From positions 57,402-121,401 of the forward strand of contig NCSJ02000120.1 in the NCBI GenBank assembly GCA_002812745.2: DNA of 64,000 nucleotides, given 5' to 3'. Origin of the DNA: Scytalidium lignicola. Taxonomy: Eukaryota; Ascomycota; Leotiomycetes. The position numbers and the translations under genes were made by a program. Within the stretch, counting starts at the first letter, position 1. Each line of letters starts with the position of its first letter. Positions 18,316 through 62,067 of the stretch are shown here, in pieces. The notes beneath the pieces were generated by a model, which was given only the letters and a program-made list of their open reading frames with translations, searched no databases and had not been told where the DNA came from.

Positions 18316-21300
18316 TCAAACTTTGCTGCCACTTCCTTCACGTTCTACCCATTCCACCACTTTCAATTGTACCTTATTCGTATCCACCAATTGCTTCAGG
18401 GCGTTCGAAGACTTCTCCTTAGTCATGGAATCGGCCGGGTTTGTGGTTCCCTGTATCCATTTAACCTCTGCAATCTCCCGTCGCTCGTAGGCCTGGCGGA
18501 GGCACATCACGTCAATCATCAAGCGCTTTTCTTGTGTAGTTCCCAGCTTGACAAGACAATCGTAAAGTGATTTCGAATCTGTGCAAAGTACCAGTGGGAG
18601 GCTAATCTTCAAGGCCTTGTCGATGGTAGATTTGATGGAGGCTCCCATATCGAACCCATGAGCCATTCCATAGAGCTCAGAAGTTAAAACACTCCAGGTA
18701 ACCCTTTTACACTTAATCGAGGACCAATGCAATATATTTGCGTTTCCCTCTCCATCTGCCAAAGCCAAAACATAACCAATCTGCGAAGACAAGTCCTTGT
18801 TGTTTGCAAAAGAAGCATCTGTGAATACCAATAGTTGTAAAGTGTTTTTGTCCAACTTGACAAAGCGTAAACCCCTAACAACATTCTCGATTTGCCACTG
18901 TAATCGTTTATTCAGAGCCTTGACGTCCTTTTCGTCTGGATTTACAGCTTAGGCTGCAACTAACAGGTCAAATGTGGCTTCTGGCTAACAAACAAACGTG
19001 ATATATGCTCCCCTTGCGCGTTAAACAACATATTGCTCTTTGGTAAAGAGGTTTTAATGTACAATTCCACGAGAACTTGTTGTATTCGTCGATTTATTGC
19101 TCATAAGCTTCAGGTTACCACACTAGCATTCCTGAGTAAGGGTGATTTCGTTATCTTGTAGTTGAATAACACCACCGTTGAATTTGAGGCTCTTTTCAGA
19201 AGTCAAAAGCTCTCATTCCTTAGCTAGAAACTTAGCCTTTTGAAGCTGTACTTACTCTTATTGTGCAAACTCAGAGTCTCCAACAAACAGTGTATCGTCG
19301 GTTTGAAGGCCAACAAGGCCAAATAGGTTGTTGCTGTACAAAAGGCATAAGTCATAAGTAGATTACTCTATTGAAAGCTCCTTAACATGATATAAGTGAT
19401 AAGTCTTGAACCAGTAGTTCCCAGCTTCAAGGACTCCATATAAAGGCTTAATAACCCTCAAAATTGAGTCTTCCTGAAGGCATAATTATTAAGCAAGTTC
19501 AATAGGTAGTCGTATGTAAAAATCATGGTTTAACAAGGTTGTTAATTGTACATAAGCCTGAGAAATGTCCTGTGAGTACAAATCTGTAGTTTCACTCTCC
19601 ATAGCCACAATACAAAGAACGATTCTCTGGCTGACACGTTGAATGGTTGGAGATTAAGTCAAAACCAGTTCCTTTCCTTCATCATTATATGCCTGTACTA
19701 CAAGCCTTGATTTCTCAAAAGCTTTCTCCGTCCCTTTATTCTTGATCTCGTCCACAAATCTCACGTTGAAAATGCATACCCCTTCAGGCATGTCTGTCAC
19801 CAAAGCAATCTCGAAGACTCCTTTCTCCAATAACCCTGATATTTCAGCTTGTTGAGAAGCCGTATATTGATGTTCGTCTTGTGTGAATACAGTAGTATCA
19901 TCTTGTATGAACACAATGATATTAGCTAGGTTCATATCAATAAGGTACTTACATAGTCTTCCCCTTCCACGTTTGACAAGCTGTACAAGCTGTATAAGCT
20001 GTGTTGGTAGCAGTACAGTAATTGTAAGGTCGTTTCCCTCGGAGTTCTCCTCTTCTTCAACATCTTCGGTATCAACCTCTGGTAACTCAATATCGTTCAG
20101 TTCTGTCGTTGGTATAAGGTAAGGCTTCACAAAGGTTGATCAGAACATTGTGTTGCCACAAGGTAGTACTAATACACAAAATTCACCGTCCATACTAACA
20201 AGCTTGTACAATCCCTCCCAACTCCCATTCTGGCTGGTATTACCTTCCCTCCACACGAGGACCTGTAAATTCAGTGGTAGGTCATGAATACCGTCCACAT
20301 TTAGGCCATTTCACATGTTAAGAGCATCCTGAACCTAACGTTTTGCCCTCAATTTGTATATCTCCTCCATTGCCTTTTTAATTGCAACTGCCCTTTGAGC
20401 AACTGTTAGGGAAGGAACGTCAAATTCAGACATTCAAGGGTAAGCACCATACACTAAAAGTGTAAGAACAAAGCCGTCTGGACCTACCAAATCGTTGACA
20501 GCTTTAAAAGCCATCTGTAAGGCCATCTCCTTGTCAATATCGCGGATTTCTGTGATAATGATTTGGTAGGCACGTCGTACAAGGCCATGATACCTTTCAA
20601 CGGTTCCAATAAAGTTATAGGCTTCCACTGGGACAGCCTTCAAAGTGATTCCCATAGTATTAACATATTGCTGAAATTCTTTACTCACAAAGTTCTTTCT
20701 AACGTCAATAGTAATCTGGTCAGGAGAGCCTAAATAAGTATCAATCCAACACATTCAGAGTACATCCCAAGTGTGTTTAGCACTAATGTTCTGGAGCCAT
20801 CTGCCGGCCTGGTATCAAGTACCCTCATCGACGACATGAAGAACTAGCTTTCCGGAGATATAAAAGATGTCTACAATAATAGAATAATTAAAGCTGACAT
20901 CGTCTTTAAGGCTGAATCTGAAGCGTCCTGGCGACTTGCCATAGCATTGACAGTGAACACAATACTTAGTCAAGTACTCCAAGGCTTGTTTGTCAATATC
21001 ATGACCAGCTCAGTCCAATATCTTCTGAAGCCTACTTACTGATGGGTGGCCAAAACGCCAGTGTAAGCATTACAATTCGACGTTAGTCAAGAAACAAAGG
21101 TTCTGATCGAAAGATTCGACAACTAACACTTGTAGAGGAATCTTCCACAGCATAAAAGGATGACTAAATCAGCGTACAATTAGTATTTCACCTTGTGGTG
21201 TAACCAGGTTGTTTGTAAGATTGTTAAGGTATATACCTAAATGGTCTATATCGGTTATACTAAGTAAAAAAGGTATATCTGCTTGGACAATGTGGAACTT

Positions 21301-53167: not shown

Positions 53168-54699
53168 ATGCCTCGGATCCAGGAATTCCAGCTTCACCCC
53201 TTTGGTTGGGAGAATGACCCAGAGGAGGAGCGATTCAAGCTCTCTACTATTGACTACTTAACGACAACGACCTATCTTCCCATGGCTATCTTTTTTAGGC
53301 TCGAAGAGGCAGAGAAGCCGTTGGTGCTAAATTAGCCATCTGTCTAGGAAGCAAGTTTGCTAACTCCTCCAACAGCAAGACTGCAGCAATACTTAAGGAA
53401 GGCATAGAGCGGACTCTCAGCCAGATTAGACACTTTTGTGGCACTATTGAGAGGGACGACGATGGCCACCACTCTATAGTCAAGAGGAAGAGCAGTACGG
53501 TCAAGTTTGTCATTCAGTACCTCGACTCCCCCGAGGATAAATTTCCGTCTTTTTCCGAGATCGCAGAAGCTCACTTCGTCTCGTCTATACTTGGCGACAT
53601 TGATGTCTTGTGCAATGCTCCTATGACTTGCGGCAGTAAGCCAGAAGCACATCCTGATAACCGCCCGGCAATCTCATCATTCAAAGCCAATTTTGTCCCT
53701 GGCGGTCTTATCCTTATTATACACGGCCACCATTACAGCAATGGCATCACAGGCTTTAACTTCTTGGTTGAACAGCTGGCAGGGAACTGTTATGCTATTG
53801 CACATGCGACCGAGTTCCCCTCCTTTGACATGAGGTGCCTTGATCGCAGCGTCTTGAGCTTCTTGGAGCACGACCGGCCGTCGAACTCCAAAGAGTCGCA
53901 GGTCGACGCGCCTCCTCGCCCCGGCGCAAACATGCAGCACAGGCAGTCGCAGTCGCTAATGTTCCACCTACGCAAGAGCAGAGCTGCAGAGCTGAAAAAG
54001 GCCGCCTCGTCTAGTGATGGCTCCTGGATCTCCACATACGATGCTGTATGCGCCATGATCTGGCGTATCCTCTCTAGGATCCGCGAGCCTCTGTATAAGC
54101 CTGGCTTAGATTACAGGCTGCTCTGGGCAACAGGCGTAAGCATACATAAGCTATTTACCAACCCTCCGCTACCTGCTGGTTTTCAGGGCAACTCACAAGT
54201 CGACATTAAATCCACTATGTCAACTATACCGCAGTTGACTCTAGCTGAAGTCATCTCAGAGGCGCCATTATCTAAGATAGCAAGCTATACACGTCAGCTG
54301 ACTGACAGTGTTACTGCCGATCTTGTGGCTGCTATGCTGCAGGAACATGCGCATGTGCGTAACAAGCACGACCTATCAATCAACCTTGCATCCTTCCCGC
54401 CTATGTCTATATTAGTGAGCGACTGGCGCATCGCTCATCTCTGCAAGTTTGATTTCGGCTTCGGTGAGCTCAGTGGTTGGCGGCACTTGTTCGGTGGGGT
54501 GCCCCCGTGCCAAGTCCTTGTCTATGCGCCGCATAAGGGCCCAGCTGGGAATGATGAGGGGATAGAACTCCAGATTACGTTTGAGACAGAGCTCGCGCCA
54601 CAGCTGATAAACGATCCGGAGTGGAGCAAGTATTTCGAGTTCAGGGGTGTTGATGCGTCGGATGGAGAAAGCATGAGTATTCAAAAATCCAAGTTATGA
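53168..54699 (+). CDS. BAHD acyltransferase resembling trichothecene 3-O-acetyltransferase (copy 2)
   Basis: Exons 53168-53319 and 53376-54699 are joined across a 56-bp intron (GTTGGTGCTAA...GCTAACTCCTCCAACAG). The result is 491 residues beginning MPRIQEFQLHPFGWENDPEE. The intron removes an in-frame TAG and joins FFRLEEAEKP to KTAAILKEGIERTL, the family order. The active-site region reads IIHGHHYSNGITGF. The catalytic His is His169 of an HxxxN (not HxxxD) motif with Asn173 in place of the structural Asp. DFGFG at 410-414 stands for DFGWG. Members related to Tri101 acetylate hydroxyls of terpenoid or polyketide products. The Asp-to-Asn change may lower activity or mark a subgroup. Faces the P450 tail-to-tail. 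Confidence 0.87.
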
Positions 54700-55280: not shown

Positions 55281-57054
55281 TCATCCATGGCGCAGCTTTA
55301 CGTAAACCTCCATCTCCGGCCTTAGCCACGTCACAAAGCCCTTTTGGTCTCTCATCCAGTTTTGCGACTTTTCACTTAACCGCATGTCAAATTTCCACAC
55401 AGCCCGGCCTAGAATCAGTTTCCCCTCCGCATAGGCCAGACTTGCGTCGAGTCAGTTAGCCCAAATCTTGCACGTCCATTTGCCCCTCCGCCAGGGCAAA
55501 TCATAATAATAGTGTGACGTACCTTCTCCCTATGCAGTTGCGTGGGCCCACGCTGAACGGCTGCAGAACTTCTCGCCGATCATCCGAGAATGCTGCCACG
55601 TCGATGAATCGTTCCGGGATGAACTCCTCCGGCCGACTGAAGTTAAGAGGTGAATGGTAGGCGGCGTAATGGTTGACGCCCACTGACGTCTACTCAACTC
55701 AAGTCGTCATGGTCAGCAAAACTCAGTAGCTCCAGAGTGTTATAGCAAGTATTACTCAGTAGTAGTACTAGCTAGCAGCTTCTGTAAGATCAAGAACACG
55801 TACCCCGCCTGAAACATAGCCGCCATCGATAGTGGCTCCGCCCTTAGGGACCTGTCGCGGAAATCCCGGTACGGCCGGTGAGTATAAGCGCAAGCCCTCC
55901 TCGAGGACGGCAGCAAGATACGGGAGACGGTCGGTATTCTCAATGGTCATCATATCGTCGCTCGCAAATGAAGTCGTCAACTCATCCACCAGCTTCTGCA
56001 TCTTGTCCGGGTGTTGAAGAAGGAGAAACAAAGCCCCAGACAGCAGCGTAGCTGTCGTTTCGCTCCCTGCCTGAATCAGTGTAGCCGAGTTGCTTAGCAT
56101 CTCGTCGAAGGTGAGACCTTGGCCGGAGGGTTGGCGCAAGATGTGTTCCATGAAATCTGGGCGGGGGCGGTTGTTGTTCACTCGATGCGTTACCTTTTCC
56201 TTGGTGAGTTTCCGATGCCCATCTTGCCCCCTCACAGCATTGGAGGGAAGCATGGTATTCACGATCTGGCGGGCATACCGGCTCAGCAAAGGGATATGCT
56301 GTATGATCCGAAAGTGCATTTGGGCCTCCTCGATCTGATTCAACTTCGCGAGCCAATCAGTCGCGCCATTCTCGAGACATCCAAACGGCTCTCCGAATGC
56401 GAGATCCCCGATGATGTCAAATGTGACGAAGTTGAACCACTGGACCATATCTACGGGTGTCTCACCATGCTCGCATATCCGAGTAAGACCGTTGACGAAC
56501 TTGTTCACGTAGCCTTGGATCAGTGGTTCCTGCTCACGCAAGGAGCGTAGCGAGAACCCGGGAGAGTATAAGCGCCGGTAACGAGCGTGTTCCTCACGAT
56601 TTCCGTTGACTATGGTGGGCGCGTCAGGGTTTCTCACGTAGAATTCAGGGTCCTTGATCATTTCTAGCTCGGGCGCCTTCTTGTAGGCGTAGATATCTTT
56701 CCAAGCTTGGGGGTTGATGAATGAGAGATTGTTCGGAGCCATGCGCACAACGGGCCCGTATCTTGCGTGTAGCTCCTGCATCGCAAGGTGGTGTTTCCCC
56801 TTCCACATTGCCGCTAGATACGGGACCTTTGTCACCGCTCGGAGTCGAGGGCCTGGATATCTTGCTAAAGGATGGAACAAGACATTGTAACCAGCGGATC
56901 CCACCAAGTAGACAGCAACCTCTCTTCATTATTACGGTGTCTCCAAGTATTGGATGTACTTACTCACAAGTGTAAAGGTGCTAAAAATTATATTCGGAAT
57001 ATTTAGCAGAATCCAAGTATGGCTAGCCCGAGTGAAATTTGCCCAGTCAAACAT
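55281..57054 (-). CDS. Cytochrome P450 (microsomal, related to fungal isotrichodermin C-15 hydroxylase-type P450s)
   Basis: Four exons: 57054-56968, 56919-55804, 55689-55523, 55440-55281. Introns of 48, 114 and 82 bp give 509 residues in one frame. The N-terminal exon supplies the membrane anchor (WILLNIPNIIFSTFTL) before the proline-rich hinge YPGPRL at about 51-55. Then come the I-helix AGSETT (313-318), ExxR at 370-373 (EGLR), PERF (426-429) and the heme loop FSVGPRNCIGR with Cys453, completed across the last intron by SLAYAEGKL. The second intron uses an AG that restores TSVGVNHYAAYHSP. All core motifs are intact. Likely hydroxylates the pathway intermediate at the ER membrane. Confidence 0.9.
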
Positions 57055-57924
57055 TGTAGATTTGTATTATGCTTCTTTTCTAAAAGTCAACTGGAAAGAT
57101 GCCTCCGGCGCGTCGTGTCTAATGTTTATATATGGTTGTCCCTTTATATAGAAGTAACTTGTAAAAGAATTGCTAACAAGCTCGCGACGAAATATCATTT
57201 AAACATTTAGCAAAGAAGTATAAAAGCCATGCTACCCACATTGACTTTTACCCCACTATTAAAAGTGGGCATTTCTCAACAGAGGTACGTAAAGCAGTAC
57301 ACGATTACTTCGTCCCCGAATTGTTTAGCTATAAGCCACCTCTATCAATCTTTTATTTTCCTTGAAATTCTAAACCACAAAGCAAATGTTATAGGACGGC
57401 GAAGACTCAAAGCATAAGGACGAGCGCTAAGCACGTAAACATATGGCCACAAATTTCTTTCTCGTGTTATCTCTTGCTAGTTATCTCCTTGATCTATTAC
57501 ATAATACCATGTGAGTCAATCCTCGAAGGTCCTTTATCGCTCCCCTGCCCTTACTAGCACCGGCTGCTAGACACAGAAGCATAACATGTTAAAAGAATAT
57601 AAAAGTAATTTCTAGTTAAAGAACAACACAGTTACTTTAAAGGTAATATCACTTATATTAGTGTGTAATTTTTTCTTACCTTAAACTTATATAAAAAGTA
57701 ATTTTAATAGCCTCCGAATACGGAAAGTAAACCTAATACAGAAGGTAAATACTCTTCATGTTTATTGCATGCTTATTGCATAATCATTGCATATTGCCTT
57801 GCCTTGCTAATTTTTCTTAGTGTTGATATAATGTGCCCATTGCATTAATTGGACGAAGCTATTTGCTCCGCGCCTGTGGATTATAACCCACAGCTTGATG
57901 CTATCATCAACTACGTCTTGCCAT
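57055..57924. other. Intergenic region between P450 and dioxygenase
   Basis: Contains the P450 promoter region and an AT-rich patch around 57600-57800. Small frames (57019-57210, 57229-57417) show nothing recognisable. No repeat boundary was found. Confidence 0.45.
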
Positions 57925-58899
57925 TTAAGGCAGCCACATAGGCAAATGCAATGGTACTGTACTGTGGAGCTCCATAGTATCTGCATAACCCGACACATGC
58001 CCCTCTAGTTTAGGTCGCCGAGTAAACACGATTAGCATGTCTCTGGTGGCGGGCTTCGTCGTATCTAGTTGGTGCACTGATGTCACGCTGTGCTTGAAGT
58101 CGTGGTCTGCAAAGACCAGAGTGTCCAGGAAGTGCTGGTGGTGCACGCGCGCACGGATAAGGGTCGGGTTCGTCTCCCATACTTGCACGCCAGTGATCTC
58201 CTCGTTATCGTGCATGAAAGTAACGGCGCTATCAGGGCGCATGTTCTTGCTTTGCAGAAAGACCGTCATCGTGTGATCGGACCCGTCCGAGTGGACACCT
58301 TCGAGCGCCGGCTCTCCGAAAATGCCATTCTCCTTGGAAGTGTGTGTCCGCGCGTTGAACATGGTGCAGATCCAAACCGGAGAGGAATAGTCTAGGCGGT
58401 TGCGGGGCGTGACCGGGACGCCTTGGAAAATGAGTGCCTTGAAGATCATAAGTGCCTGAACGACTGTGTTGCCTTGCATGACCGTCGGAGTCTCGTCGAA
58501 CATCCTGGGGATCCCAGAGTCATGCCGCTTGTAGTCTTCTTGCACCGTTAATGTGTAAGGCTGTGCCTCAAGCCGTCGTATGCTGCGTGTCTCTGGGTCG
58601 ATGCAGTATCGCCCGTAAGTCACCGTGCGATAGTCGAGGGTTGGGTCGGGTCCCGTGAGGTCGCTGATCTGCTGGACAGACTCGAAGTCGTCTTTTCTGG
58701 CGCCGAGACCCTCCAAAATGGGGATCATGTCCTCCCCTCGGACGAAGATGAATCTATTTTGCAAGTATGTCTTGCGCAAAGCCATGATGGCAGCAATGGA
58801 CTCGTAGAATTGTGCATGATAGCGTCGTTCGAGGATATTTAAGATGTGAGGTCCTCGATGAAAGCTCTTGTGCCCGTTAACCCCATTAACGATGGGCAT
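57925..58899 (-). CDS. Fe(II)/2-oxoglutarate-dependent dioxygenase of the PF10014 (2OG-Fe_Oxy_2) type
   Basis: A single exon of 324 residues. The iron site is visible as EGVHSDGSDHT (His203-x-Asp205) and DFKHSVT (His270). Arg286 (ATRDMLIVFTRRP) is placed to bind 2-oxoglutarate. This arrangement matches PF10014, whose studied bacterial members hydroxylate free aliphatic amino acids such as isoleucine. The first ~80 residues (MPIVNGVNGHKSFHRG...) are less conserved. It is transcribed away from the PLP enzyme across about 1.4 kb and in the same direction as the P450. Inference: C-H hydroxylation of a free amino acid made by the PLP enzyme. No stop or frame break; ATG at 58899 is the first in frame. 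Confidence 0.87.
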   Translation of the reverse strand: MPIVNGVNGHKSFHRGPHILNILERRYHAQFYESIAAIMALRKTYLQNRFIFVRGEDMIPILEGLGARKDDFESVQQISDLTGPDPTLDYRTVTYGRYCIDPETRSIRRLEAQPYTLTVQEDYKRHDSGIPRMFDETPTVMQGNTVVQALMIFKALIFQGVPVTPRNRLDYSSPVWICTMFNARTHTSKENGIFGEPALEGVHSDGSDHTMTVFLQSKNMRPDSAVTFMHDNEEITGVQVWETNPTLIRARVHHQHFLDTLVFADHDFKHSVTSVHQLDTTKPATRDMLIVFTRRPKLEGHVSGYADTMELHSTVPLHLPMWLP

Positions 58900-59126
58900 A
58901 GTGTTTTGATAATGAAAAAGTTCAAACTTCGGTCATTGAGGTTGTGAGATAAGGTGTTAGTCTTCTTATACAGCGAAGGCTATAGCCATATTATAAGACT
59001 ACAAACACTGTAAACGTGTCACGTCGAGCACCTCTGCTCACTTATTGTGGGACGTTGGTCAAGACTACTGCAATGCCTCTCACCTCCTCCTTCACCCCAC
59101 ACTTCAAGTACAGTTACATGATTGTA

Positions 59127-59464
59127 CAGAGGTCGCGGTNAAAAAGTCATGACTATTCTGCCAAGCCACTAGTGCTAAATATTCTAAAGCATTATTTTCT
59201 ATGTAAATTGGTATTAAATTCAATAAAACTACTATAATCAAACCCTATTAGGATTTTTCTTCCTTTATTTACTACTTGTTCTAGTTTTACATATTTATTC
59301 TTATCATTTAAAACTATAACCTTTTGTAAAAAGAAGAATTATTTATTATCTAAATATGCTAAAGTATTTAATACTTTGCTAAACTTACTATATATGTGCG
59401 CTAAATCCACTAGTGTTTACTAGTAGCTTAGCAGAATAATCATAACTTTTTACTATAACCTCTG
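59127..59464. mobile_element. 338-bp non-autonomous relative of the Tc1/mariner element at 39421-41100
   Basis: Begins CAGAGGTCGCGGTNAAAAAG and continues TCATGACTATTCTGCCAAGC; the right end is the inverted ACTTTTTACTATAACCTCTG. It is flanked by TA at 59125-59126 and 59465-59466. About 200 bp at the left and a short right end match the larger element; the middle, including both catalytic regions, is missing. It is AT-shifted relative to the larger copy. It sits in the shared upstream region of the dioxygenase and PLP-enzyme genes. Confidence 0.85.
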
Positions 59465-59466
59465 TA

Positions 59467-60333
59467 CTCGTTAATAATTAGTTTGCTCGGTTATAAGCAA
59501 TAATACAGTATATTAAGTTATAAGTTAGTATTAGAACTTAAAATTAACAAATTCGACAATTTAACAATTTGATAATTTAATTAAAGTTATATTAATAATT
59601 TTAAAATTTTAATAATTTAACAATTTAACAATTTACTTTAATAAAAGCAAATTAATTAATATTTATTATAAAAGTAGTTATAATTATAATTTCTTATTTT
59701 TAAAATTTAATAATTAATTTTTTTTATAATTATAATTAAGTTAATTGAAAAAAAAGTATATTTAAGTTTAAATAATTAAGTTTAACTAATTAATTTTTTA
59801 AATAATAATTTTTAAAAATAAAAACTTTTAATTAAAAATTAAAGATTTATATAAAATAAATAAAAACNAAAAATTTAATTAATGTATTAAATGTTTTTAA
59901 CAAACTGATTATTATATTAGATTTTATTCTTATTATAATATTTTTTTTTTAAATAAAGAATTAAAATAATTAATCAAAGAAAAAGTAATATAAAATTNAT
60001 TATAAATGAATTAAGATTTTATCAAGTTTAACGAATAAATACTTTATAATAAAAGTATTCTTTTTTGTTTAAATNAAAAATTATATAATAATTTATATAA
60101 TTTGTTATTATTAAAGAATAATAAAGTTTTAACAAATAATGTTAGTCCATGTGCGACTTACCCTTGCACCACTAAAGAATTGCAAGCAGCACTCATCCTG
60201 GCGACGCTTTGCCATATTACTAGGCTTTACATCGGCTCCTTTCACACTATAAAGCTAGGGCAAGTAAGTGGCAAAAGAATTATCTAACGTTAAAGTTACT
60301 TCATTTCTCTGCCTCGTCCCAACGGCCATCTCA
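59467..60333. other. AT-rich upstream region of the PLP-enzyme gene
   Basis: 59480-60130 is extremely AT-rich, without coding potential. The last ~190 bp return to normal composition and probably hold the core promoter and leader. No TATA box or operator is distinct enough to call in such AT-rich DNA. Confidence 0.5.
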
Positions 60334-62067
60334 ATGTTCACTCCCCATCCCACAGCAGTCGCCAATTCTCATGGGCAGTTGTCGCGACGCACAGATTTGA
60401 AGTCGTATGAACCGCTCAGGTTGTCCATCGTCGACACATGGTCTCTTCTTGTATCCCGCCTCAAGGCGACGACGGCCACCATCAAAGAACGTTATGATGA
60501 ACGCGCCCGTATAGAAAAGGAAATAGATGCCCGCACTGATGACTGGTGCATCAACATCTTTATGCAGATGTACACAAACCTAGAGCATCTTACTTCAGAG
60601 CTGGAGATGCAGCTAGCCATTACCAAGAACCTGGGCCAGGGCCAGAACCAAGCGTCGTCGGCGCTGTCGGTATTCGCTCTTACCCCCTGGCAGATGGAGG
60701 AGCGCTACCGCGCTCTGATCCAGCTTCAGTCCTGCTTAGGGTCGTTTTTCGAGCGCGCGAGTCCCACGTACGACCAATCTAAGACTGTATGGTGGTTTGA
60801 CCCTTCTTACCACCAGTCGGAGGGCCTCAACTATGATCGGTACGGAGCGCCAGACCCTCGAGATTTTGAGGCACGACTCCTCCGCGCCTTGGGGTTAGGC
60901 CACGAAAAGGTGCCACTTAAGCTGTTATTGACGTCTAGCGGCGTTGCGGCCTTCACAGTGCTGCATCAGTTCCTGATGAGCCAGGTTCTTACCGCAGGTG
61001 ACACAATTGTCATCTCTCCGTACCTGTATTTCGAGTGTTTTGAGCACTTGCGGCAAGTCTCGCATGTACGAGTCATCAACTCAGCCACATTTGACGCCGA
61101 AGACATCATCGCGACGGCGGAGAAGCACAACGCCAAGGCAGTCTATCTTGACCCCATGGCCAATACGCTAGGCTTGGAGACTACTGACCTACGGCAAGTT
61201 GCGCAGCTCCTGGCCGGCAGAGAAGGCTGGGCGGACCGGTATCTAATTATTGACGGGACGCTAATTTCGGGCGGAATGCCGTTGTACGAGTGGTTTAACA
61301 AGTCTAGCCACCCAAAGATTCTCTACTACGAGAGTGCCCACAAGTACATCCAGATGGGTATGGACATTGTTATGTGTGGATTCATTGTCTCCCAAGAGGT
61401 TTACCACGAGCGCCTTAATCTCATCCGCCAGGTCACCGGGACAACGTTATATTCACGCCAGGCAAACGTCTTACCGCCCATCGACTATGATATCCATCAA
61501 TCGCGGATGCACTGGTTGACCACAAACGCGGAGAAGCTCTATCACATTCTGGAAAAGAAGAGCGGCACCATTGCCCAGTTCAATTTTCCGACTCATTGGC
61601 GCAAGATGGGCTGGGGTCACGGCGGAAACGTGGTCACCATCCGGCTCTTTGGGGATGATCAGATGAACAAGCGACCGAGCTTGGATATGTTTACGAGCCT
61701 GGTCCTGAGGGCGGCTGAGGAAGAGGGCGTTGCAATGACAAAAGGCGGCGGCCTGGGGTTCTCCGTCACTCGCATTTGGCCGTCGACCCCTTTCATCCGG
61801 AATGAGGACCCGTACATGAGGATCTCCGTCGGAGTCGATCCAAATGAGGTCGAGCCCGTGGCTAGGGCAATCTGTAAAGGGCTGGATAGACATTACCGCG
61901 CTTCCAGATCCGCGATGGCACAATGGAGGCTCAAGGAGAATGGGTTAGTCAAGGATAACGGATTGGTCAAGGAGAACGGATTTGTTAAGGAGAACGGATT
62001 TGTTAAGGAAAATGGGGTAGTCTTAGCTAACCGGGTTTATTTCGACGGTAGCAAAGAGTTAACATGA
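60334..62067 (+). CDS. PLP-dependent enzyme of the Cys/Met metabolism (cystathionine gamma-synthase-like) family
   Basis: A single exon of 577 residues from the ATG at 60334. The in-frame GTG at 60268 is too far upstream of conserved sequence to be likely. Fold-type-I landmarks: YDRYGAPDP (167-175, equivalent of the YxRxxNPT phosphate site), TSSGVAAF (200-207), IIDGTLIS with Asp307 facing the pyridine nitrogen, YESAHKYIQMGMDIVMCGF with Lys337 as the PLP lysine, and MRISVGVD with Arg496 for the substrate carboxylate. The SAHKYIQMGMD segment replaces the usual S-x-TKY-x-GHSD, so it is a divergent subgroup. A ~130-residue N-terminal extension is partly coiled-coil. Expected chemistry: beta/gamma-elimination or substitution on an amino acid such as an activated homoserine. 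The C-terminus carries a hexapeptide repeat. Confidence 0.88.
   Translation: MFTPHPTAVANSHGQLSRRTDLKSYEPLRLSIVDTWSLLVSRLKATTATIKERYDERARIEKEIDARTDDWCINIFMQMYTNLEHLTSELEMQLAITKNLGQGQNQASSALSVFALTPWQMEERYRALIQLQSCLGSFFERASPTYDQSKTVWWFDPSYHQSEGLNYDRYGAPDPRDFEARLLRALGLGHEKVPLKLLLTSSGVAAFTVLHQFLMSQVLTAGDTIVISPYLYFECFEHLRQVSHVRVINSATFDAEDIIATAEKHNAKAVYLDPMANTLGLETTDLRQVAQLLAGREGWADRYLIIDGTLISGGMPLYEWFNKSSHPKILYYESAHKYIQMGMDIVMCGFIVSQEVYHERLNLIRQVTGTTLYSRQANVLPPIDYDIHQSRMHWLTTNAEKLYHILEKKSGTIAQFNFPTHWRKMGWGHGGNVVTIRLFGDDQMNKRPSLDMFTSLVLRAAEEEGVAMTKGGGLGFSVTRIWPSTPFIRNEDPYMRISVGVDPNEVEPVARAICKGLDRHYRASRSAMAQWRLKENGLVKDNGLVKENGFVKENGFVKENGVVLANRVYFDGSKELT
61930..62019 (+). repeat. In-frame 18-bp minisatellite encoding (V/L)KENG(L/F) repeats
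   Basis: Five consecutive units of 18 bp near the end of the PLP-enzyme gene (residues 533-562) encode LKENG, LVKDNG, LVKENG, FVKENG, FVKENG. Two units are identical at the DNA level over most of their length. They lie beyond the conserved catalytic domain. Confidence 0.9.

What the first reader, a model, noticed from the sequence alone, without database searches (positions are those of the whole stretch)
55281..62067. Possible amino-acid-derived natural product module: divergent PLP enzyme plus PF10014 dioxygenase plus P450
Seen: a Cys/Met-family PLP enzyme (60334-62067) and a PF10014 Fe/2OG dioxygenase (57925-58899), transcribed divergently, next to a complete P450 and a BAHD acyltransferase. 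No PKS, NRPS or terpene synthase lies in the window. Known: Cys/Met-type PLP enzymes build unusual amino acids (LolC in lolines, Fub7 in fusaric acid, BesB in bacterial ethynylserine synthesis), and several such pathways include Fe/2OG enzymes. PF10014 members hydroxylate free amino acids. Inference: the pair makes and oxidises a non-protein amino acid that the P450 and acyltransferases then modify. The lysine-site segment (SAHKYIQMGMD) departs from the usual family motif, so the reaction may be new.
Basis: partly seen in the sequence, partly recalled or inferred. Interest (0 to 1): 0.78.

Follow-up and report, generated by a model that had tools for sequence, protein, structure and literature searches.

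The report
Conserved fungal amino-acid enzyme trio
A common wood and soil mould carries two enzymes, usually joined by a third, that other moulds also keep side by side and some fuse into one protein; they look like an unstudied pathway for making an unusual, valine-like amino acid.

Summary
The window (Scytalidium lignicola: its P450 is 100% identical over 87% of its length to B7463_g6647 on a 121,401-base contig) has an intact 577-aa Cys/Met-type PLP enzyme, a divergent PF10014 Fe/2OG oxygenase and a complete four-exon P450.

The link is real. PLP and PF10014 genes bear consecutive locus tags in 4 other fungi; 20 of 68 single-gene PLP hits share a contig length with a PF10014 hit of one clade, none with 52 hits of the sister TqaL-like clade. 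Five proteins fuse both domains. The P450 is third in a row in Coniothyrium glycines.

The oxygenase is a sister clade of TqaL, the L-valine aziridine synthase, and keeps its metal- and amino-acid-site residues. The PLP enzyme stands apart from five other PF01053 proteins of its genome. His precedes the PLP lysine in 74 of 74 rows of the oxygenase-associated clade, Ser/Thr in 20 of 20 others counted. Nine of 13 bacterial relatives are fused to a threonine-dehydratase-like domain.

Most likely: a module that oxidises Val/Ile at C-beta and reworks it by PLP chemistry. Product and reaction order are unknown; the acyltransferase is untested.

The parts
60334..62067 (+). Cys/Met-type PLP enzyme, 577 aa, single exon; extra helical N-terminal region about residues 32-141, catalytic fold to about 523, low-confidence tail
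61333..61365 (+). SAHKYIQMGMD segment (residues 334-344) with Schiff-base lysine K337 preceded by H336
57925..58899 (-). PF10014 Fe(II)/2OG oxygenase, 324 aa, sister clade of TqaL
55281..57054 (-). Cytochrome P450, 509 aa, four exons; third member of the core in several fungi
58900..60333 (.). Intergenic stretch between the two start codons, 23.6% GC, holding an inverted-repeat element and an AT-rich block
53168..54699 (+). BAHD / TRI-like acyltransferase; membership in the module not tested

Best explanation
The three genes are the core of an uncharacterised fungal pathway to a non-protein, valine-like amino acid. Shown: the PLP enzyme and the oxygenase are a conserved, sometimes fused unit, and the P450 joins them in several species. 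Inferred: the TqaL-like oxygenase takes an aliphatic L-amino acid (valine or isoleucine) and attacks its beta carbon, giving the 3-hydroxy amino acid or the aziridine. The PLP enzyme then binds that product as an external aldimine and uses Cys/Met-family elimination/replacement chemistry to break the new C-beta bond and reposition or replace the function; in bacterial and some fungal relatives a threonine-dehydratase-like domain is the partner instead. The P450 oxidises the product further. The order, oxygenase then PLP enzyme, is inferred and not shown.
For: Pairing: consecutive locus tags in Neocucurbitaria cava (009694/5), Amphichorda felina (009209/10), Coniothyrium glycines (008736/5) and Trichothecium roseum (005176/5); 20 of 68 single-gene PLP hits share a longest-contig length with one of 65 PLP-clade PF10014 hits, 12 of them on contigs under 200 kb and 4 under 20 kb, against 0 with 52 TqaL-like hits. 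Fusions: P0070-P0073 carry both Pfam domains and P0069 shows both parts in its sequence. Tree: paired-type (66) plus fused (6) oxygenases form one clade, support 0.994, apart from 55 TqaL-like rows. P450: C. glycines 008734; Fusarium nygamai P450 08052 and PLP 08050; 5 of 32 close P450 hits share a contig length with one of the 68 PLP hits and 0 of 87 more distant ones. Substrate: E251, R144, R178, R185, the His-x-Asp...His site and R339 are kept in the window and 51 of 51 paired-type rows counted; E251 and the three arginines are the residues proposed, from docking, to hold the amino acid in TqaL (PMC10764440, passages). PLP enzyme: lysine and family positions kept. Bacterial kin: dehydratase-like domain in 9 of 13 loci; alternative ValRS within 7-10 kb in 4 of 13 and a truncated ValRS-like gene directly downstream in 2 more.
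Against: No biochemical or expression data. Position F168, where F168L abolishes TqaL activity (PMC11880133, passages), is Tyr in the window and in 50 of 51 paired-type rows; F344 is Val. Fused forms carry Leu/Ile at F345. So the reaction may differ from TqaL's. 48 of 68 single-gene PLP hits share no contig length with a listed PF10014 hit. In Fusarium decemcellulare the P450 and PLP tags are far apart (g1879, g2832). None of the 13 bacterial loci has a PF10014 gene that tblastn finds, so the ValRS link is indirect; and in 3 further genomes (those of L012, L014, L019) a second ValRS match lies, by contig number, away from the PLP locus.
Confidence: 0.55

Rival explanations
1. PLP first: the PLP enzyme builds the unusual amino acid by gamma-replacement from an activated homoserine, as recalled for LolC, Fub7 and CndF, and the oxygenase then hydroxylates it.
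For: Cys/Met fold with the family's catalytic positions kept; the fused proteins put the PLP part first in the chain.
Against: 26.3 bits against the O-acetylhomoserine sulfhydrylase model, cut-off 495.1; the oxygenase keeps the TqaL amino-acid pocket, which suggests a small natural aliphatic substrate.
Confidence: 0.25
2. The PLP enzyme joins the oxygenase product to a second amino acid: the aziridine nitrogen (a secondary amine, like proline in the recalled LolC reaction) attacks a PLP-bound vinylglycine unit.
For: Would explain why an aziridine-type oxygenase is tied to a Cys/Met enzyme; F345, which favours aziridine over hydroxyl in TqaL, is kept in the window and 50 of 51 paired-type rows.
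Against: Fused forms have Leu (5) or Ile (1) at F345 (6 of 6); Leu there made TqaL release mainly 3-hydroxyvaline. Dehydratase-fused relatives make no aziridine by chemistry known to me.
Confidence: 0.1
3. The unit is catabolic or detoxifying: it destroys a branched amino acid analogue rather than making one.
For: Named hits are scattered over several classes of ascomycetes (class assignments recalled); PLP lyases are often degradative.
Against: A conserved P450 partner, and bacterial kin in clusters with adenylating, carrier, carbamoyltransferase and radical SAM genes, look biosynthetic.
Confidence: 0.1

Closest known systems
TqaL (fungal L-valine aziridine synthase, PDB 7EEH)
   Same: Same PF10014 family; phmmer E 2e-97 over residues 21-323; His-x-Asp...His site, presumed 2OG arginine, E251 and three carboxylate arginines kept.
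   Different: Separate sister clade (0.994); F168Y, F344V, P142D, F143Y; tied to a PLP enzyme and a P450. The TqaF and TqaM partners of the tryptoquialanine cluster were not searched for.
Cystathionine gamma-synthase / gamma-lyase / methionine gamma-lyase family (PF01053)
   Different: 14-23% identity to the solved members listed; extra helical N-terminal region; His before the PLP lysine; apart from five PF01053 proteins of its own genome, 100/99.
Dehydratase-PLP fusion proteins (PF00291 + PF01053) of bacteria and fungi
   Same: Nearest relatives of the PLP part outside the oxygenase-associated clade; shared invariant residues.
   Different: Partner is a threonine-ammonia-lyase-like domain (below curated cut-offs), not PF10014; Ser/Thr instead of His before the lysine.
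LolC, Fub7, CndF, BesB (recalled)
   Same: Cys/Met-type PLP enzymes in amino-acid natural product pathways.
   Different: No direct comparison was possible; the window enzyme is far below the curated cut-off of each of the 17 NCBIfam models listed for it.

Membership tests
TqaL aziridine synthases | PF10014 domain with His-x-Asp...His iron site and 2OG arginine (assigned by me from the motif) | tested here: met
   H254, D256, H323, R339 kept in the window and 51 of 51 paired-type rows
TqaL aziridine synthases | amino-acid pocket E251, R144, R178, R185 (from PMC10764440 passages; numbering offset of 73 fitted) | tested here: met
   all kept in the window and 51 of 51 paired-type rows
TqaL aziridine synthases | F168, F187, F234 and F345, shown by mutation to matter (PMC11880133 passages) | tested here: inconclusive
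   F187, F234, F345 kept; F168 is Tyr in the window; Tyr is not among the mutants told there
TqaL aziridine synthases | falls inside the clade that holds TqaL 7EEH | tested here: not met
   sister clade, 0.994 support
TqaL aziridine synthases | converts L-valine to the aziridine | not testable with these tools
   needs an enzyme assay
Cys/Met PLP enzymes (PF01053) | Pfam match over cut-off, fold, Schiff-base lysine, pyridine Asp, phosphate Tyr-x-Arg, carboxylate Arg (roles recalled) | tested here: met
Canonical transsulfuration / sulfhydrylase families | score over a curated model cut-off | tested here: not met
   best 41.1 bits against a cut-off of 700
Canonical transsulfuration / sulfhydrylase families | clusters with other PF01053 proteins of the same genome in a tree | tested here: not met
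   30 rows of this family against 5 own-genome proteins (one a fragment), 100/99
LolC / Fub7 / CndF / BesB | groups with these sequences in a tree | not tested
   their sequences were not at hand; model TIGR01326 gave 26.3 of 495.1 bits
Dehydratase-PLP fusions | N-terminal PF00291 domain | tested here: not met
   only PF01053 found in the window protein

The most novel reading that the evidence does not exclude
A new family of Cys/Met PLP enzymes, marked by His in place of Ser/Thr before the PLP lysine, that takes a C-beta-oxidised branched amino acid (3-hydroxyvaline or its aziridine) and relays the function to C-gamma or a C=C bond. In its ancestry a threonine-dehydratase-like partner was exchanged for a TqaL-type Fe/2OG oxygenase, and His336 took over the acid role for the leaving group. 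The products mimic valine, which is why several bacterial clusters with the same kind of enzyme carry a second valyl-tRNA synthetase.
Probability: 0.16. Interest if true: 0.85.

Novelty: new variant of a known kind. Interest (0 to 1): 0.66.

Why it matters
It gives a compact starting point (three genes, one organism, dozens of homologues, natural fusions) for a fungal pathway that cluster finders keyed to PKS, NRPS or terpene synthases would be expected to pass over. If the chemistry is right, it adds a new fate for TqaL-type valine oxidation and a new reaction to one of the best-studied PLP enzyme folds. The apparent exchange of a dehydratase partner for an oxygenase, with a matching change next to the catalytic lysine, is a clean case for studying how PLP enzymes change reaction.

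Tried and rejected
Primary-metabolism transsulfuration enzyme: rejected by model scores and tree. Pseudogene or fragment: rejected; frames are intact and catalytic residues kept. Chance neighbours: rejected by locus tags, fusions and the contig-length control. A bacterial PF10014-PLP pair: tblastn found none in the 13 loci; 5 of 13 genomes have a PF10014 gene; the one on the same contig as its PLP gene (Actinosynnema) is about 28 kb away among large PKS/NRPS-like frames (read by eye) and gives no tblastn match to the window's oxygenase. Literature: no paper on this pair found in ten searches, which cover open-licence PMC only; most were seen as listings. Passages were read of PMC10764440, PMC11880133 and PMC7902601, the last of which only names pleurocybellaziridine; PMC6256649 was read whole. 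A paper on fusadapamides (PMC12751119) was seen in a listing only.

Limits and dropped rows: the PF10014 search listed 120 of 293 hits and the P450 search 120 of 3706. A first quick tree dropped P0080 and six bacterial rows because my anchor motif missed them, and took wrong frames for some outgroup rows; one search replaces it with all 13 bacterial loci, 17 window/protein rows and 5 own-genome rows. Residue counts for the oxygenase cover 51 paired-type rows and a set of 9 Aspergillus-type rows (8 named so) of the 65; five rows (P0137, P0141, P0142, P0146, P0147) were not counted; two of the nine (P0143, P0145) have lost iron- or substrate-site residues. In the lysine-motif count P0074 was in no group; it has Ser. 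The His rows form one clade, so this is one change, not many. Genes in bacterial loci were picked by my own script, not by a gene finder, and five of those loci (L014, L019, L021, L022, L023) are cut on one side by a contig end. Contig-length matches on long contigs do not show adjacency; locus tags and the four contigs under 20 kb do so best. The N-terminal helical region was not folded or searched alone.
Full report
What is there. The window is the right end of a 121,401-base contig (C23) of a 46.85-Mb assembly in 664 contigs. The window's P450 is 100% identical, over 87% of its length, to Scytalidium lignicola B7463_g6647 on a contig of that same length, so the organism is taken as S. lignicola (Leotiomycetes); its genome announcement (PMC6256649, whole text) describes a 47.7-Mb draft. 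The first two and the P450's main exon are over their Pfam cut-offs. The genome search found one PF10014 gene, one match to this PLP enzyme and 15 PF01053 match pieces in all.

Is the pair more than chance? Yes. The protein search gave 82 PLP relatives and the PF10014 search 293, of which the best 120 were listed. In four species the two genes have consecutive locus tags. Twenty of 68 single-gene PLP hits share the exact longest-contig length with one of 65 PF10014 hits in the PLP-associated clade; 12 of these contigs are under 200 kb and four under 20 kb (5,371, 9,781, 16,306 and 18,755 bases). None of the 52 TqaL-like hits with a contig length does. Emericellopsis atlantica has one oxygenase of each clade, and only the PLP-associated one shares the contig length of its PLP gene. 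Five proteins (P0069-P0073; three bear names, from Penicillium canariense, Aspergillus turcosus and A. oryzae var. brunneus) carry a PLP and a PF10014 part in one chain, and P0082 holds the end of the one and the other. For the P450, C. glycines has P450, PF10014 and PLP as 008734, 008735 and 008736; F. nygamai has P450 08052 and PLP 08050; 5 of 32 close P450 hits (66% identity or more) share a contig length with one of the 68 PLP hits and 4 with a PF10014 hit, against 0 of 87 more distant listed P450s for either. One distant P450 row (P0313, P. canariense, 44%) shares a 4.86-Mb contig with fusion protein P0069 but is 360 tag numbers away, which shows why long contigs alone prove nothing.

The oxygenase. 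Its best solved relative is TqaL (2e-97). TqaL turns L-valine into the aziridine pleurocybellaziridine, and L-isoleucine was the only other protein amino acid accepted (PMC10764440 and PMC11880133, passages). A tree of 127 rows puts all paired-type (66, window included) and fused (6) oxygenases in one clade (0.994) apart from 55 TqaL-like rows, which include bacterial ones. The His-x-Asp...His site, the presumed 2OG arginine, E251, R144, R178 and R185 are kept in the window and in 51 of 51 paired-type rows counted. F345, whose change to Leu or Ala makes TqaL release 3-hydroxyvaline as main product, is Phe in the window and in 50 of 51 paired-type rows but Leu (5) or Ile (1) in the six fused rows. 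F168 is Tyr in the window and 50 of 51 paired-type rows, Phe in the fused ones. So the kind of substrate is likely shared with TqaL, but whether the product is an aziridine or a hydroxyl cannot be told from sequence.

Bacterial relatives. A pattern scan of the genome collection gave 114 stretches, of which 13 encode a relative (L012-L024), a lower bound. In 9 of 13 tblastn finds a PF00291 domain upstream in the same open frame; where models were run (L013, P0079, P0075) it is threonine-ammonia-lyase-like, below curated cut-offs. The catalytic lysine motif SFKxRG is present in 9 of 9 bacterial and 4 of 6 fungal fusions (one of the two without it lacks the start of the domain, the other was not looked into). 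Neighbours confirmed by Pfam in one or more loci are a carbamoyltransferase, adenylating and carrier domains, radical SAM proteins, an isopropylmalate-synthase-like and a dehydrogenase gene, a desaturase and an acyl-CoA dehydrogenase; P450-like frames were read by eye. An alternative valyl-tRNA synthetase (model NF000540 over cut-off in 4 of 4) lies 7-10 kb from the PLP gene in 4 of 13 (L013 extended by L026, L016, L020, L024); the genomes of L013, L020 and L024 have a separate, better-scoring valS elsewhere and that of L016 a second copy (matching of contigs by position). L017 and L018 have a truncated ValRS-like gene directly downstream. Against this, the genomes of L012, L014 and L019 also show a second ValRS match that is not at the PLP locus, and the chance level was not computed. 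It suggests, indirectly, products that look like valine.

How it most likely works. The oxygenase functionalises C-beta of a valine-like amino acid; the PLP enzyme processes that product; the P450 tailors. The link and the residues are shown; substrate, order and product are inferred. The most specific version, elimination at C-beta with relay to C-gamma assisted by His336, is speculation that fits the exchange of a dehydratase partner for an oxygenase.

Verdict. I rate it a new variant of a known kind.

Noticed in passing
window 59124-59467: A 344-bp element with terminal inverted repeats (arms 59124-59144 and 59447-59467) lies between the divergent genes; a near-complete copy (94%) exists on contig C184 and shorter matches elsewhere, 13 matches in all. 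It looks like a MITE-type insertion.
   Followed up: partly
window 59140-60130: An AT-rich block (14.8% GC) between two genes of 53-54% GC, resembling the AT-rich stretches that fill the window's first 18 kb (18-22% GC), perhaps RIP-made.
   Followed up: no
window 18316-18948 and 19654-20139: Open frames on the minus strand that look like remains of a copia-type retroelement polyprotein (read by eye; not searched).
   Followed up: no
L017:11445-13406 and L018:11343-13301: ValRS-like proteins of about 650 aa; the L018 one shows no anticodon-binding domain in Pfam. Next to them lie a small carrier-protein-like frame (by eye) and, in L018, a fatty-acid-desaturase gene: possibly an amino acid to carrier protein ligase.
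   Followed up: partly
L022:6766-9354 and L023:4477-7050: Two small genomes (1.1 and 1.3 Mb), one titled Gracilibacteria, whose genes need TGA read as sense, encode the same dehydratase-PLP fusion.
   Followed up: no
P0143 and P0145 (Aspergillus violaceofuscus, A. saccharolyticus): Oxygenases of the PLP-associated clade that lost E251 and H323 (P0145 also H254), so probably inactive as Fe/2OG enzymes.
   Followed up: partly
window 53168-54699: The BAHD-type acyltransferase has HHYSN where HxxxD is usual (motif recalled, read by eye), so Asn stands in for the Asp.
   Followed up: no
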